Shown: positions 1-6,666 of the stretch, one piece after another
Layout: the number at the start of each line of letters is the position of its first letter
Position numbering within the stretch: position 1 is the first letter of the stretch
Source: JBFJWU01 sp041623475 [NCBI: bacterium]
GTDB lineage: Bacteria; J088
Direction of reading: 5' to 3'
NCBI GenBank assembly: GCA_041623475.1
Contig: JBFJWU010000193.1
Coordinates: 1 to 6,773, forward strand
DNA length: 6,773 nucleotides
Position numbers and translations under genes: made by a program
The notes under the pieces: model-generated
What the model saw: only the letters and a program-made list of their open reading frames with translations
What the model was told of the DNA's origin: nothing
Databases searched by the model: none

Positions 1-155
1 CACATGGTGCCGGGGTGAACCCGATGAAATTGTAAGCAGATATCCTGCCACCCCGCGCCGGCCAGAATCGTCCCCCCGGCATCGATGATTCCCACAGCGA
101 AACCGGCGGTTCTCCACAAGGAATCGAGCAACCCCTGGACGACAGTGATATCGAG
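1..155 (-). pseudogene. PocR sensory-domain protein, internal fragment (no start, runs off left edge)
   Basis: Read on the minus strand from about 155 down to 1, this stretch encodes one uninterrupted frame of about 51 residues. It contains the blocks LLDSLWRTAGFAVGIID, then GGTIL, then GWQDIC, then FHRVHP. These match, from memory, the PocR ligand-binding domain found at the front of many diguanylate cyclases, histidine kinases and regulators; in such proteins the domain senses a small ligand and passes the signal to an output domain, which would lie off the left edge. The domain begins at its usual first residues (LDI) near 155. The frame upstream has no ATG or GTG before a TAA at 186-188, so the protein's true beginning is absent. 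It collides head to head with the acyl-CoA reductase fragment, also missing its beginning. I am fairly sure of the domain. Whether the gene is truly broken or only artificially joined is open. Confidence 0.72.
147..155. other. Head-to-head junction between two 5'-truncated genes
   Basis: The nine bases GATATCGAG are read as Asp-Ile-Glu of the acyl-CoA reductase linker on the plus strand and as Leu-Asp-Ile of the PocR domain on the minus strand. To the right only the reductase is recognisable; to the left only the PocR domain is. The first six bases are a perfect palindrome. Two unrelated genes both losing their beginnings at one short shared sequence suggests a microhomology-mediated inversion or deletion, or a chimera formed during multiple displacement amplification or assembly. 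The exact breakpoint is uncertain by perhaps ten bases either way. Confidence 0.6.
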
Positions 156-1097
156 TGCCCGGCCCTCCCCGATTACGCATGGAAATTATGGGATTATTGG
201 GAACGCCACCTGGATCCCGACCTGCACCGCAGCCAGAGCCTGGAATCCAGGGTTGCCGGGCGAAACGTGCTTGTTACCGGCGCATCCAGCGGGATTGGAC
301 GCGCGGTCGCCCTGCAATTGGGCGCTGCAGGCGCAAATGTCCTGCTGGTCGCTCGCAGCCGTGCCCCCTTGAGCAAGGTCCGAAAAGAAATCGAAGCCGC
401 TGGTGGAACCGCCCACGTCTATACCTGCGATTTGAGTGACCTGGAGCAGATCGACGCGGTCGCCCAGCGAATCCAGAAGAAACACGGACCAGTTGATGTC
501 CTGGTCAATAACGCCGGCCGCTCAATCCGACGAACGATCGAGGAATCGACAAACCGGTTCCACGATTTCGAACGGACAATGCAATTAAACTATTTCGGCT
601 CATTGCGGTTGACCCTGGCGTTATTGCCGGCCATGCGCGCGCGCCGTCGCGGCCACATCATCAACATATCGAGCATCGGCGTTCAAACGAACGCGCCCCG
701 GTTTTCCGCCTATGTCGCAAGTAAGGCTGCCCTGGATGCATTTTCCAGATGTATTGCAGCCGAAGTGTTTGCGGACAACGTTGCGATTACAACGGTATTC
801 ATGCCGCTCGTCCGAACGCCAATGATTGCGCCAACCAAAATCTACAATCTGTTTCCGGCCTTGACCCCGGAACAGGCTGCCGAAATGGTCATGAGTGCGA
901 TCATCAAACGACCGAAGCGAGTTGCAACCAGGCTGGGGACATTCGTCGAGGCGCTGTACGCAATCTCACCTACATCTGTCGACTTTTTCCAGAACGTTGG
1001 CTACCGGCTTTTCCCAGCCTCAAAACCTGGTGAAGAAACCGAATTGCCGATGGAGAGCGTCGCATTTGCCCACCTGATGCGCGGCGTCCACTGGTAA
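147..1097 (+). CDS. Fatty acyl-CoA reductase, C-terminal SDR domain only (5'-truncated)
   Basis: In two-domain bacterial fatty acyl-CoA reductases (about 660 residues, NADPH-dependent, acyl-CoA to fatty alcohol, linked to wax ester synthesis) an N-terminal reductase domain precedes a short-chain dehydrogenase domain. Only the linker and second domain are present here. The linker motif LWDYWERHLDPDL lies at about 186-224. Then come TGASSGIG (276-299), NNAG (507-518), the block FHDFERTMQLNYFGS, the catalytic serine in NISSIGV, and Tyr/Lys of YVASK (Tyr codon 711-713). APRFSAYVASK and TPMIAPTKIY match the Marinobacter enzyme as I recall it, and the usual MRG-aromatic-Trp end is intact (MRGVHW). 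The frame is open back to position 36 but contains no ATG or GTG before a GTG at 267, which would start inside the first beta strand, so I do not accept it as a natural start. Sequence left of about 147 belongs to a PocR gene on the other strand. As it stands it is probably not a working reductase. Confidence 0.85.
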   Translation, partial: DIECPALPDYAWKLWDYWERHLDPDLHRSQSLESRVAGRNVLVTGASSGIGRAVALQLGAAGANVLLVARSRAPLSKVRKEIEAAGGTAHVYTCDLSDLEQIDAVAQRIQKKHGPVDVLVNNAGRSIRRTIEESTNRFHDFERTMQLNYFGSLRLTLALLPAMRARRRGHIINISSIGVQTNAPRFSAYVASKAALDAFSRCIAAEVFADNVAITTVFMPLVRTPMIAPTKIYNLFPALTPEQAAEMVMSAIIKRPKRVATRLGTFVEALYAISPTSVDFFQNVGYRLFPASKPGEETELPMESVAFAHLMRGVHW

Positions 1098-1120: not shown

Positions 1121-1432
1121 TCAGGCGCTGGGCTGGAATCTGTTCCCGTGGCATTCCGGACACCGGCGAATCAGGCCAAAGTAGCCTACAAAAACCTCGG
1201 TATCGCAGTCGTAGCAAATAACGTGCGCGGGCCCCAACAGCGGTGTACGAAGCCATTTCTTGCCGGCAACCGGCGCGTTCGTTCTCGGTGCCGGCGCACC
1301 ATCGACGCTACCCACGTGCTGAAACGTCCGGCGCGGGCGGTCCGGCGATATTCGGACGTGCCAGCTTTTACCCGCCGCTGGGCGGTCGGAGTCGCGGCCA
1401 CGGCTTGCTGCGGTGTCGTTTTTGTCACTCAC
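1121..1432 (-). CDS. Small zinc-ribbon protein, function unknown
   Basis: I do not recognise the family. The predicted protein is 103 residues. The first 65 or so are hydrophilic, basic and probably disordered, rich in Arg, Pro, Ala and Ser. The last 35 form a compact zinc-ribbon: CYDC at residues 73-76 and CPEC at 91-94, a CxxC-x14-CxxC arrangement expected to bind one zinc, separated by an aromatic stretch (VFVGYFGLIRR). The frame extends to a GTG at 1456, but I prefer the GTG at 1432 because a GGGGG run sits 7 nt before it, whereas nothing comparable precedes 1456. Codon choice looks like that of the neighbouring genes. No membrane segment or signal peptide is visible. It converges on the acyl-CoA reductase fragment (23-bp gap) and lies downstream of the gntR gene on the same strand, across a structured spacer. 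A role in nucleic-acid or protein contacts is possible but only inferred from the fold. Confidence 0.6.
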   Translation of the reverse strand: MSDKNDTAASRGRDSDRPAAGKSWHVRISPDRPRRTFQHVGSVDGAPAPRTNAPVAGKKWLRTPLLGPAHVICYDCDTEVFVGYFGLIRRCPECHGNRFQPSA

Positions 1433-1536
1433 CCGATTGCCCCCAGGATGCGACACCAGTCCCGATTCCCGGAACTGCAGTACAGTAAAACAAGTGTTTG
1501 AATGGAGTTTCAGGTTAACATCGTCCGGCCCACGGC

Positions 1537-2535: not shown

Positions 2536-3480
2536 ATGAAAGTATTTCGCAACCTTTCCGACATTACACCGACTGATACGCCCGCGGCTGCCGTGACAAT
2601 CGGCAACTTTGATGGCGTCCACCGCGGCCATCAGGCGCTTCTGCAACGGGCCGTCGAAACCGCGCGCAACCACAATGGCACTGCCTGTGCGATGACGTTT
2701 GACCCCCACCCCCAGGCAGTGTTGAAAAACGATGCACCTGCAGCAATAGCAACGCTGGAGCAGCGCACAGAATGGATTGCCGACTGTGGCATTGATTGCC
2801 TGCTGATCCAGCCGTTTGACGACGATTTTTCAAAGACAGAGCCCGATGCGTTCCTGGACGCGATCTTCGGCGCATTTGGCCCGAATGCCCTGGTCCTTGG
2901 ACACGATTTTCGATTCGGCAGCGGTGGCAAGGGAACCGTTGCGGATGCGCTGGAGCACGCCCGAAAGAACAATTACCGCGTGACCGAGATGCCACAAGTG
3001 TTCGTTGACGAGCAGGTGGTGTCGTCCAGCAAGATCCGCACAGCGCTGGCAGCCGGAGACGTTCGCAGTGCCGGAACGCTGCTTGGCCGGCCCTGGCAAA
3101 TCCGGGGTGTGGTAACCAGCGGAGCCGGACGGGGAAAAACCCTCGGTTACCCGACGGTCAATATTGATACCGCCAACCAGTTGATTGTCCCGGACGGGGT
3201 CTATGGTGGCCGCTTGCAGTTCGACGGGCATAAAGGCGCGATCGCTGCAATCAGTATCGGTACCAATCCGACGTTTGGCGATGAACCCCGCCACGCAGAG
3301 GCGTTCGTACTGGATTATGACGGTCCCGACATTTCCGGTGCCGTCAAACTGGAGTTGCATACGTATGTCCGGACGCAGGTGAAGTTCAGCGATGCGGCCA
3401 AACTGATTGCCCAGATTTCCGCGGATGTCGAAACAATCCGGGGCACGGCTCAACGCGAAGGCTGGATGCACGGTGCCTGA
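2536..3480 (+). CDS. ribF: Bifunctional riboflavin kinase / FAD synthetase
   Basis: Cytosolic enzyme that phosphorylates riboflavin to FMN and then adenylates FMN to FAD, the last two steps of flavin cofactor synthesis. At 314 residues it has the usual family length. The N-terminal FAD synthetase (nucleotidyltransferase) domain shows GNFDGVHRGH (23-32, the HxGH-type ATP site), FDPHP (55-59), GHDFRFG (122-128) and SSSKIR (163-168). The C-terminal riboflavin kinase domain shows GRGKTLGYPTVNI (198-210, with PTVN where PTAN is more common), GVYGG (221-225), IGTNPTFG (241-248), the conserved Glu255 before LDYDG (259-263), and a typical end with KFSD and a QI-x-x-D motif. The ATG at 2536 has no strong Shine-Dalgarno. 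In most gammaproteobacteria ribF sits beside ileS and lspA; here it has its own promoter region and overlaps aroE. Expression may be affected by the divergent gntR. Confidence 0.95.
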   Translation: MKVFRNLSDITPTDTPAAAVTIGNFDGVHRGHQALLQRAVETARNHNGTACAMTFDPHPQAVLKNDAPAAIATLEQRTEWIADCGIDCLLIQPFDDDFSKTEPDAFLDAIFGAFGPNALVLGHDFRFGSGGKGTVADALEHARKNNYRVTEMPQVFVDEQVVSSSKIRTALAAGDVRSAGTLLGRPWQIRGVVTSGAGRGKTLGYPTVNIDTANQLIVPDGVYGGRLQFDGHKGAIAAISIGTNPTFGDEPRHAEAFVLDYDGPDISGAVKLELHTYVRTQVKFSDAAKLIAQISADVETIRGTAQREGWMHGA

Positions 3481-4336
3481 CCACGACACCGGTCTGTACG
3501 GTGTCTGGGGCCACCCCATTAAACATTCATTCAGTCCATTAATCCACAATCCCGCATTTTCAAAATTTGGCATTAATGCCATCTACACGGCGTTTGACAT
3601 ACACCCGGACGAGTTGGAACAAGCCGTTCGAGGGGCTCGGTCGCTGGGGCTTGCTGGCTGGAATCTGACCGTCCCGCACAAACAGGCGATCCTCCCGCTA
3701 CTGGACGAGATTTCCGATACGGCCAACCGTATAGGTGCCGTAAATACAGTAGTCAATGACAATGGGCGCCTCGTTGGTGACAACACCGACGCAGACGGTT
3801 TCTTGTCTCCCTTGCTGGCAAGAACGCAGTTCCAGCCAACGGCTGCGGAATGCCTCTTGATCGGTGCGGGTGGTGCCGCCCGAGCCGTAGCGTTTGCCCT
3901 GGCAGATGCCGGAGCCGGCCGGATCACAATCGCCAACAGGACTGCTGAAACGGCGCAGGACCTTGTCGCCGAGTTGCGGAGCGAAACCAGTTTGCCGTCC
4001 GCCACAGCCTGTACGCTTGAAGCTGTCGCCGGAACACGGTATCCGTCCGTTCAACTGGTGGTACAGTGCACCTCTCTGGGCCTGTCAGGGCATCTCCCAC
4101 CCTGCCCGGATTGGGAATCGTTACCGCGGGATGCCGTAATCACAGACCTGGTCTATGGCCCACAGCCCACGCCTTTCCTGCAAGCTGCCTCCGCCCACGG
4201 GCTGGCCACGCACGACGGCATCTGGATGTTGCTTGGACAAGCATCTCAGGCGTTTTACATCTGGACCGGACACCACTTTGACCTGGACGAAGCGTCAGGT
4301 TGGATTGCCGACGCGATCAAACAGCGGCAGCAGTAA
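3473..4336 (+). CDS. aroE: Shikimate dehydrogenase (NADP+)
   Basis: Catalyses NADPH-dependent reduction of 3-dehydroshikimate to shikimate, the fourth step of the chorismate pathway to aromatic amino acids. From the GTG at 3473 the protein is 287 residues, normal for AroE. Substrate-binding domain: GHPIKHSFSP (13-22, with the shikimate-binding serines 19 and 21), NLTVPHK (64-70, catalytic Lys70), GAVNTV (88-93) and GDNTDADGF (102-110, catalytic Asp106). NADP domain: GAGGAARA (131-138) and NRT (155-157, phosphate-binding). The C-terminal DLVYGPQPTP and GQASQAFYIWTG segments are typical. The usual N-x-T-S segment reads QCTS (198-201), a small deviation. The frame is open further upstream to 3407, but that extension is simply ribF coding sequence; GTG 3473 overlaps the ribF end by 8 bp and has GAAGG about 11 nt upstream, so translational coupling with ribF is likely. 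Confidence 0.94.
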   Translation: MPDHDTGLYGVWGHPIKHSFSPLIHNPAFSKFGINAIYTAFDIHPDELEQAVRGARSLGLAGWNLTVPHKQAILPLLDEISDTANRIGAVNTVVNDNGRLVGDNTDADGFLSPLLARTQFQPTAAECLLIGAGGAARAVAFALADAGAGRITIANRTAETAQDLVAELRSETSLPSATACTLEAVAGTRYPSVQLVVQCTSLGLSGHLPPCPDWESLPRDAVITDLVYGPQPTPFLQAASAHGLATHDGIWMLLGQASQAFYIWTGHHFDLDEASGWIADAIKQRQQ

Positions 4337-4341
4337 CGACC

Positions 4342-5073
4342 CTATTCAGGTGGCGCAAATACATCGCGCTGCGGCCAGATATCCAGCTCGACGGGCGCTG
4401 CCGTAGGACCTGCTGACAAAACCCAGCCGACCGCAGACGCGATGTCCGCGGGATCGACCATTTCGTCGTGCCGGATTCCCGGGATTTGCCGGGTCATGTC
4501 GGTCGCTGTCATGCCAGGGCAGATGCAGGAAACCAGTATCCCGTCGCCGCGGACCTCCTCGAAAACTGCGCGCGAAAATCCGATGACACCGAATTTGCTG
4601 GCGCAATAGCCGGAATTTGCCGGAAACCCCTGTCGTCCGGCGATTGATGCAATATTAATAATCGCGCCCCTCTGGCGCTGCCGCATACCGGGCAGAACCG
4701 CATGCGTCAGGTGCATCGTCGCCCGCAGATTGATATTGATCATTCGGTCCCAATCTGCGGTATCCGCCTCAGTAACCGGAGCGACACTGTAGTATCCAGC
4801 GTTATTGACCAGCACATCGACGGCGCCAAGCCGAATTCCTGCCTGGCCCAGCAGCTCAGCCGAGGTTTCCGGCTCGTCCAGGTCCCAGGCAATCGACTGG
4901 ACCTGCGACTTCGGGAAGTCGGAACCTAGTTCGGCCTCGGCCTGTTGGAGCTTCTGCAGGTTTGTTGCGACGATGGTCACATTCGCACCGTGTGAGGCCA
5001 GTTCCCGGGCGATCGCGAGTCCAATTCCACGGCTGCCGCCGGTCACCAAAGCGTGTTTTTCTGCCAGTTCCAT
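4342..5073 (-). CDS. Short-chain dehydrogenase/reductase (SDR), substrate unknown
   Basis: A 243-residue classical SDR, a soluble NAD(P)-dependent oxidoreductase with a single Rossmann domain. Seen motifs: TGGSRGIG (11-18, cofactor loop), NNAG (90-93), the structural Asn in NINLRA (112-117), catalytic Ser143 in IASIAG, Tyr156 and Lys160 in YCASK, and PG (186-187) followed by a threonine. All catalytic residues are present. It resembles 3-oxoacyl-ACP-reductase-like members, but SDR substrates cannot be read from sequence and I give no symbol. The ATG at 5073 is preceded by a very strong GGGAGGG, only 4 nt away, which fixes the start. The stop lies 5 bp from the aroE stop on the other strand, and the gene diverges from mgtE across 165 bp. 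The acyl-CoA reductase fragment also carries an SDR domain, but the two proteins are clearly different. Confidence 0.92.
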   Translation of the reverse strand: MELAEKHALVTGGSRGIGLAIARELASHGANVTIVATNLQKLQQAEAELGSDFPKSQVQSIAWDLDEPETSAELLGQAGIRLGAVDVLVNNAGYYSVAPVTEADTADWDRMININLRATMHLTHAVLPGMRQRQRGAIINIASIAGRQGFPANSGYCASKFGVIGFSRAVFEEVRGDGILVSCICPGMTATDMTRQIPGIRHDEMVDPADIASAVGWVLSAGPTAAPVELDIWPQRDVFAPPE

Positions 5074-5238: not shown

Positions 5239-6666
5239 GTGGTCAGCGTCAAGGAAAAAAAGCGGTTTTCTACCGGCCGCGCCCGTAACCCGGAAGCGTT
5301 TGTTGAAGTCACTAGACCAGAACAACTGGTCAAGATCCTTCACCGACTGATTCGGGCCGGCGCGGACCGTCGAATTTCGGCCATACTCGCCCGCCTGCAC
5401 CCGGCCGACATCGCCCACATCCTGACATTCCTGCCGATTCCCGAATCGCGGCAACTGATTCGAATCCTGTTCCGGCTACGCAAGGCGGCGGCAACCATCA
5501 GTGAACTGCCCAGCGGCATGGTCCACGAGATACTTGAAGGAATTGAACCGGACATCATGGCCGAGTTTGTCCGGCGACTGCCCCCGGACGACGCCGCGGA
5601 TATCCTGCAGGAATTGCCGCCTGACGAGCTTCGCGCGGTCTTGCAGATTCTGCACATAGACGAGGTTAACGAGTTAAAAGCGCTACTGGCCTACAGCGAC
5701 GATACGGCCGGCGCAATCATGAACCCGGACTTTTTCGCCCTTGATTCGCAGTTAACCGTTGACGAAGCAATCCAGAAGATTCGCGATGCGGGTGACCTGC
5801 TCGAGTCTGTTTTCTACATCTATGTCGTCGACGAAACGAATCGCCTGCTGGGCACGGTCAGCATGCGCGAGATCCTGCTTGCACCCGGGACTCGCATCCT
5901 CAGCGACGCGCTGCGGACCAATCCGGTAATGGTCCGTGTGGATATGTCAGAAGACAAGGTCGCCGAGATTATTGCCAAGTATGACCTGCTGGCGGTGCCC
6001 GTCGTCGATGAGCGGGAGCAGTTAATCGGTGTAATTACCGTTGACGACGTAATTGATGTCATTCAGGACGCCGCGACCGAAGGGCTGTACCGAATGGCGG
6101 CGCTGGACGAGGAAGACCGTGTATTCAGTTCGCCCGCGCGATCGGTTGCCCTGCGATTGCCGTGGTTGAGCCTGAACTTCCTGACGGCACTGCTGGCCGC
6201 GCTGACGGTTGGGCTGTTTGAGGACCTGATTACCGAAGTCGTTGCCCTGGCGGCCATGATGCCGATTGTCGCGGGAATGGGTGGTAATTCCGGCACCCAG
6301 ACGCTGACCGTGATGATTCGCGGTCTTGCCCTGGGCGAAATTCGATCACTGAACGTGCGCAAGGCTGTCGCCAAAGAGTTCGCCGTCGGCCTGACCAATG
6401 GCATCTGCATTGGCCTGATGGGTGGTATTTTTGCATGGCTCTGGAAAGGTGAATGGTGGCTGGGCGTGTTGCTGGGAATCGCAATCGTCGTCAACCTCTG
6501 CATCGCGGCGCTCGGCGGCGCGACCATTCCCCTGATACTTCGTCGTTTCAAACTGGACCCCGCGTTGGGATCCAGCATCTTCCTGACGACCCTGACCGAC
6601 GTTTTCGGTTTCTTCTGCTTCCTGGGACTGGCTGCCTGGCTGCTGCCGCTGATCGGCGTGATCTGA
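5239..6666 (+). CDS. mgtE: MgtE-type magnesium channel/transporter
   Basis: Inner-membrane, magnesium-gated channel that takes up Mg2+ and may pass other divalent ions such as Co2+. I choose the GTG at 5239, with GGGAG 9 nt upstream, giving 475 residues, close to the usual 450. An open frame reaches a TTG at 5170, but it has no ribosome-binding site and adds residues atypical of the family. Order: cytosolic superhelical N domain (about 27-150, with the typical LPPDDAADILQELP segment), CBS domain 1 (about 161-214), CBS domain 2 (about 228-280), connecting plug helix with an acidic EEDR, then five membrane helices (about 308-473). Signature GNSGTQT is at 349-355, and the pore-lining Asp is in TDVFGF (Asp454), equivalent to Asp432 of the Thermus enzyme. 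All expected parts are intact. The next gene starts within its stop codon, so the two are probably cotranscribed. Confidence 0.95.
   Translation: MVSVKEKKRFSTGRARNPEAFVEVTRPEQLVKILHRLIRAGADRRISAILARLHPADIAHILTFLPIPESRQLIRILFRLRKAAATISELPSGMVHEILEGIEPDIMAEFVRRLPPDDAADILQELPPDELRAVLQILHIDEVNELKALLAYSDDTAGAIMNPDFFALDSQLTVDEAIQKIRDAGDLLESVFYIYVVDETNRLLGTVSMREILLAPGTRILSDALRTNPVMVRVDMSEDKVAEIIAKYDLLAVPVVDEREQLIGVITVDDVIDVIQDAATEGLYRMAALDEEDRVFSSPARSVALRLPWLSLNFLTALLAALTVGLFEDLITEVVALAAMMPIVAGMGGNSGTQTLTVMIRGLALGEIRSLNVRKAVAKEFAVGLTNGICIGLMGGIFAWLWKGEWWLGVLLGIAIVVNLCIAALGGATIPLILRRFKLDPALGSSIFLTTLTDVFGFFCFLGLAAWLLPLIGVI

What the first reader, a model, noticed from the sequence alone, without database searches (positions are those of the whole stretch)
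120..185. Two unrelated genes joined head to head, both missing their beginnings
Left of about 147-155 only a minus-strand PocR domain is recognisable; to the right only a plus-strand acyl-CoA reductase linker and SDR domain is. Neither has a start codon: the PocR frame meets a TAA at 186-188, and the reductase frame has no ATG or GTG upstream of its linker. Both proteins read through the shared bases GATATCGAG, whose first six bases are palindromic. Either a natural inversion or deletion occurred at short homology, or this is an inverted chimera of the kind produced by multiple displacement amplification, or a misassembly. If it is an artefact, the two genes may lie within several kb of each other in the true genome, on the same strand.
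Basis: partly seen in the sequence, partly recalled or inferred. Interest (0 to 1): 0.7.

Follow-up and report, generated by a model that had tools for sequence, protein, structure and literature searches.

The report
Chimeric joint of two gene pieces
At the edge of this stretch of DNA, two unrelated genes that have both lost their beginnings are stuck together back to front over about nine shared bases, most likely an accident of DNA amplification or library making and not a biological novelty.

Summary
Minus strand, bases 155 to 6: the first third of a PocR sensory domain (PF10114, 33.2 bits, cut-off 23.9). Plus strand: the C-terminal half (profile 326-657 of 657) of a two-domain SDR/acyl-CoA-reductase-like protein (PRK07201 type). 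Column scores end PocR similarity at base 155 and begin clear reductase similarity at 141-146 (the profile alignment starts at 126), so 147-155 (GATATCGAG) fits both genes. Of 92 related loci, 89 could be anchored on the linker, and in all 89 the open frame runs at least 215 residues upstream of it; the window's does not. Neither arm shows decay, and the joint lies about 150 bases from the window's edge. Best reading: a chimeric molecule made by template switching at short homology (MDA or library step), matching the main class of MDA chimeras (PMC1855051, passages). A natural inversion is not excluded: no reads, source genome or close relative were available. That the two genes lie within a few kb of each other found no support in distant relatives. 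Interest is low.

The parts
2..155 (-). N-terminal third of a PocR sensory domain; the frame runs off the window's left edge and lacks its beginning at the joint
   Evidence: PF10114 E 5.5e-8, 33.2 bits over cut-off 23.9; 36-55% identity in the 9 of 31 PocR loci that gave a tblastn match of 25 bits or more; similarity ends at base 155
147..155 (.). joint: GATATCGAG, bases that fit conserved positions of both genes (PocR L-D-I on minus, reductase D-I-E on plus)
   Evidence: column scores; reductase similarity may reach back to 144, 141 or, by the profile alignment, 126
144..1097 (+). C-terminal half of a two-domain SDR / acyl-CoA-reductase-like protein (PRK07201 type), open to its stop; N-terminal half missing
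   Evidence: NF005539 E 4.5e-140, profile 326-657 of 657; 80 relatives scored column by column
171..224 (+). inter-domain linker DYAWKLWDYWERHLDPDL of the two-domain protein
   Evidence: near-invariant in 80 relatives; note that one of the patterns used to collect them lies in it
264..830 (+). SDR domain (adh_short)
   Evidence: PF00106 E 3.5e-53, residues 77-265 of P0001

Best explanation
The joint is a chimeric DNA molecule and not a gene arrangement of the organism. During amplification or library preparation a 3' end of one strand annealed to another template over about 9 shared bases (GATATCGAG) and was extended. This fused a piece of a PocR-domain gene, in inverted orientation, to the middle of a two-domain reductase gene; the assembler then took the chimeric molecule in at the end of a contig. 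Shown: two gene pieces head to head, joint within or next to 147-155, both without beginnings, neither decayed, joint about 150 bases from the window's edge. Inferred: that the window is a whole contig, that the cause is artificial, and which laboratory step caused it.
For: Both similarities meet at the same 9 bases. The reductase frame is open for 314 residues from base 153 with linker and SDR domain intact, and the PocR frame is open to the window's edge, so there is no decay as expected of an old rearrangement. Of 92 related loci 89 could be anchored; all 89 have 215 or more residues of open frame before the linker, and 88 of 89 keep 10 or more of 25 upstream consensus residues, against 4 of 25 in the window; the exception L039 (2 of 25, 364 residues of open frame) fails by what I read as a one-residue insertion. 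The joint lies 147-155 bases from the window's end, about one short-read length. Inverted orientation with short complementarity is the dominant MDA chimera class: 406 of 475 inverted, complementarity up to 21 bp (PMC1855051; abstract, outline and 12 passages seen).
Against: No reads, coverage, source record or genome were available, so the artificial origin is not shown. Whether the sample was amplified is unknown. The distance from the edge means something only if the window is a whole contig. In the MDA paper complementary bases are common for inverted pairs closer than 10 kb (93.5%) but not for those further apart (34.8%), and closeness of the two genes has no support here. Codon usage of the PocR arm is ambiguous: low for the window's genes by simulation (1.8% of 3000 as low), yet 5 of 35 pieces of 51 codons from the same genes score as low or lower, and 3.2% of 3000 uniform draws score as high. 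G+C of the first 150 bases (0.593) is ordinary for the window. None of this shows whether the arms share a genome.
Confidence: 0.73

Rival explanations
1. A real, recent inversion or deletion in the organism joined the two genes at microhomology, destroying both.
For: About 9 shared bases at the joint is also what microhomology-mediated rearrangement leaves. Genomes with both families exist: G003, G384, G491, G500 and G898, 5 of the 12 genomes that matched the reductase at E 1e-90, have a PocR match; in G491 the reductase match is a single-domain frame of 308 residues.
Against: No decay in either arm; position near the window's edge; none of 89 anchored relatives is broken there.
Confidence: 0.17
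2. The assembler alone joined two unrelated sequences without any chimeric molecule.
For: The joint lies close to the window's edge, where false extensions are common (general knowledge). Similarity does not exclude a shared stretch of up to about 30 bases (126-155), which a small k-mer could bridge (recalled).
Against: The best-supported shared stretch is 9 bases.
Confidence: 0.08
3. The arrangement is functional: a stand-alone SDR enzyme and a PocR protein read divergently from overlapping starts.
For: Single-domain SDR relatives exist (open frames of 325 and 308 residues in G500 and G491).
Against: No ATG, GTG or TTG in either frame before the conserved parts. Those single-domain matches begin at query residues 28-29 (bases 234-239), past the linker, while the window keeps the linker of the two-domain type.
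Confidence: 0.02

Closest known systems
Inverted chimeras of multiple displacement amplification (Lasken and Stockwell 2007, PMC1855051)
   Same: Two segments joined with a few shared bases at the joint, apparently in inverted orientation
   Different: Genomic distance and true orientation of the segments, and use of MDA, are unknown here
PRK07201 / NF005539 two-domain SDR family oxidoreductase (fatty acyl-CoA reductase-like; this last label is recalled)
   Same: Linker and C-terminal SDR half; best identity 62% among the 80 loci kept, 63%
   Different: N-terminal half absent; the inverted PocR piece stands in its place
PocR sensory domain (PF10114)
   Same: Profile positions 3-52 of 162 with the W-Q-D-I-C-x-x-F-H-R motif
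   Different: Cut by the window's edge; the upstream D-[LIV] of the D-[LIV]-[LI]-D motif is lost at the joint

Membership tests
PocR domain PF10114 | profile score over the curated cut-off | tested here: met
   33.2 bits against 23.9
PocR domain PF10114 | complete domain of about 162 positions | tested here: not met
   only positions 3-52; the window ends
PRK07201 (NF005539) | whole-protein score over the curated cut-off 549 | tested here: not met
   468.4 bits, from profile positions 326-657 only
PRK07201 (NF005539) | N-terminal half upstream of the linker | tested here: not met
   4 of 25 upstream consensus residues; 7 of 43 upstream columns positive
MDA-type inverted chimera | segments inverted relative to their genomic orientation | tested here: inconclusive
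   the genes are head to head across the joint, but their true orientation in the genome is unknown
MDA-type inverted chimera | short shared bases (2-21 nt) at the joint | tested here: met
   147-155 fits both families; inferred from similarity, not from the parent sequences
MDA-type inverted chimera | segments mostly less than 10 kb apart in the genome | tested here: inconclusive
   0 of 92 related loci hold a PocR match near the reductase, but the relatives are distant and many loci short
MDA-type inverted chimera | sample was amplified by MDA | not testable with these tools
   source of the window not given; no genome held

The most novel reading that the evidence does not exclude
A real, recent genomic inversion at a 9-base microhomology in an undersampled bacterial lineage, which cut a fatty acyl-CoA-reductase-like gene and a PocR sensor gene at once.
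Probability: 0.17. Interest if true: 0.2.

Novelty: not a real feature. Interest (0 to 1): 0.08.

Why it matters
Chimeric joints at sequence ends create false gene fusions, false truncations and false neighbourhoods in annotation. This one would be read as a truncated reductase next to a PocR gene. Scoring homology column by column on both strands located the joint to within about 9 bases without any reads, which could serve as a filter. Otherwise it is of little biological interest.

Tried and rejected
Tried without result: the window's own genome is not held; a plasmid DNA search gave 6 records with weak matches within bases 451-847; in viral contigs 18 stretches matched a pattern of the PocR piece but none was a relative by tblastn, and the joint has no exact copy there; plasmids hold no match to the PocR piece; no RNA family at gathering threshold and no tRNA in the window. 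No repeat of 14 bases or more links the first 150 bases to the joint; one 17-base inverted match joins 53-69 to 5349-5365 (94%), which I take as chance. The PDB search showed only ordinary SDR matches among the 60 of 95 listed.

Tried to place the organism: the best-scoring RibF match is 37% identical in 274 genomes of the class of G008 (a genome titled Chromatiales), 41% in 187 of the phylum of G003 (titled Myxococcales) and 39% in 198 of the phylum of G004 (titled Deltaproteobacteria), with listed matches of up to 38, 42 and 42%. 2 of 26 RibF loci (L109, L112) have aroE right after ribF, as the window does. The lineage stays undetermined. The class of G544 held only that genome. The PocR-fragment search gave 0 of 50 reductase genomes, but a 61-residue query is insensitive; the family search gave 1 of 50 and, in the phylum of G004, 35 of 148 at E 1e-15.

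Considered and rejected: a frameshift hiding the missing reductase half (by eye, none of the three plus frames of bases 1-150 carries the upstream consensus); the palindrome as evidence; the usual k-mer lengths 127 and 141 (recalled) as an explanation of the left arm's length, since they would put the divergence at 128 or 142 while PocR similarity reaches 155.

In one search, 3 of 92 loci (L122, L124, L125) had no anchor and were dropped; L114 and L117 repeat the regions of L004 and L003. Searches used the genomes of 50 of the 80 loci. The PocR columns rest on the 9 of 31 loci that carry the motif, aligned without gaps, which shifts L134 by one residue upstream of its insertion. Papers: only PMC1855051 was opened; some searches gave listings only.

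Full report
What is there. The window reads, left to right: a PocR-domain fragment on minus (155-2), the C-terminal half of a two-domain SDR protein on plus (to 1097), a small unassigned frame on minus (1121-1456), a GntR-type regulator on minus (1667-2440), ribF on plus (2536-3480), aroE on plus (to 4336), an SDR gene on minus (4342-5073) and mgtE on plus (to 6666). The finding concerns the first two.

The minus-strand piece. The 61-residue frame matches PF10114 over profile positions 3-52 at 33.2 bits, above the curated cut-off 23.9. Of 31 PocR loci from other genomes, 9 gave tblastn matches of 25 bits or more, 36-55% identical. Aligned without gaps on the W-Q-x-x-C-x-x-F-H-R motif, these 9 show an upstream motif D-[LIV]-[LI]-D. 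The window keeps L-D-I at its end (bases 155-147) and then has A and R where the others mostly have [LIV] and D; similarity stops there.

The plus-strand piece. P0001 matches NF005539 (PRK07201) at 468 bits but only over positions 326-657 of 657, below the whole-protein cut-off of 549. Scored against 80 relatives, 34 of 39 columns from base 144 to 258 are positive; of 43 scored columns from 9 to 138 only 7 are (bases 12, 21, 54, 72, 102, 126, 135). Because E126 and L135 agree, the profile alignment begins at base 126; the net score of 126-143 is about +1.5 bits, which decides nothing. In 92 related loci 89 could be anchored on the linker, and all 89 have an open frame of at least 215 residues before it. 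L007 has 215 because its frame runs into the end of the stretch, L005 has 238, and L039 has 364 but matches the upstream consensus in only 2 of 25 columns, by my reading because of a one-residue insertion. None of the 89 is broken where the window is.

The joint. With no shared bases, the cheapest placement of the break would need about 6.4 bits of chance agreement (hand sum). The permissive upper bound on sharing is about 30 bases (126-155). The six-base palindrome is not informative.

What made it. A shared stretch of about 9 bases is short for an assembler to join on by itself (recalled), so the molecule was probably chimeric; with the upper bound at 30 this is likely, not certain. Lasken and Stockwell found 406 of 475 MDA chimeras inverted, and complementary stretches of 2-21 nt at over 70% of joints: 93.5% of inverted pairs closer than 10 kb, but 34.8% of those further apart (PMC1855051; abstract, outline and 12 passages seen). 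A natural microhomology-mediated event leaves the same scar. Against a natural event: neither gene shows decay up to the joint, the 89 anchored relatives are unbroken there, and the joint lies 147-155 bases from the window's edge, about the length of a short read. The last point assumes that the window is a whole contig, which I infer from its odd length only. I put an artificial chimera at 0.73.

Are the two genes neighbours? In the 92 reductase loci, 1.38 Mb in all, no PocR motif and no tblastn hit (9 PocR queries, E up to 1e-3) was found; some loci reach only about 1.5 kb to each side. PocR is present in 1 of 50 genomes of the first reductase set. Of the 12 genomes that matched the reductase at E 1e-90 in the phyla of G003 and G004, 5 have PocR (G003, G384, G491, G500, G898), each on another contig than the reductase. 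So the two families can coexist in one genome, but closeness has no support. Codon usage and G+C of the PocR arm do not decide whether both arms come from one genome.

Verdict. Real observation, ordinary cause: most likely an artefactual joint. Nothing here calls for a new mechanism.

Noticed in passing
1121-1456 (-): Small frame of 111 aa ending in a CYDCD...RRCPECHGN pattern that looks like a zinc ribbon (my reading); no Pfam match at E 0.001.
   Followed up: no
2536-4336 (+): ribF and aroE directly adjacent; the same order in 2 of 26 RibF loci (L109, L112, both from the phylum of G004).
   Followed up: partly
39-44, 147-152, 4378-4383, 5599-5604: GATATC occurs 4 times where about 1 is expected; 4 of 200 shuffles reach that.
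   Followed up: no
whole window: No close relative found in the searches made: best reductase identity 62-63%, RibF at most 42% in the listed matches, best near-full-length MgtE 38-39%, so the lineage looks undersampled.
   Followed up: partly
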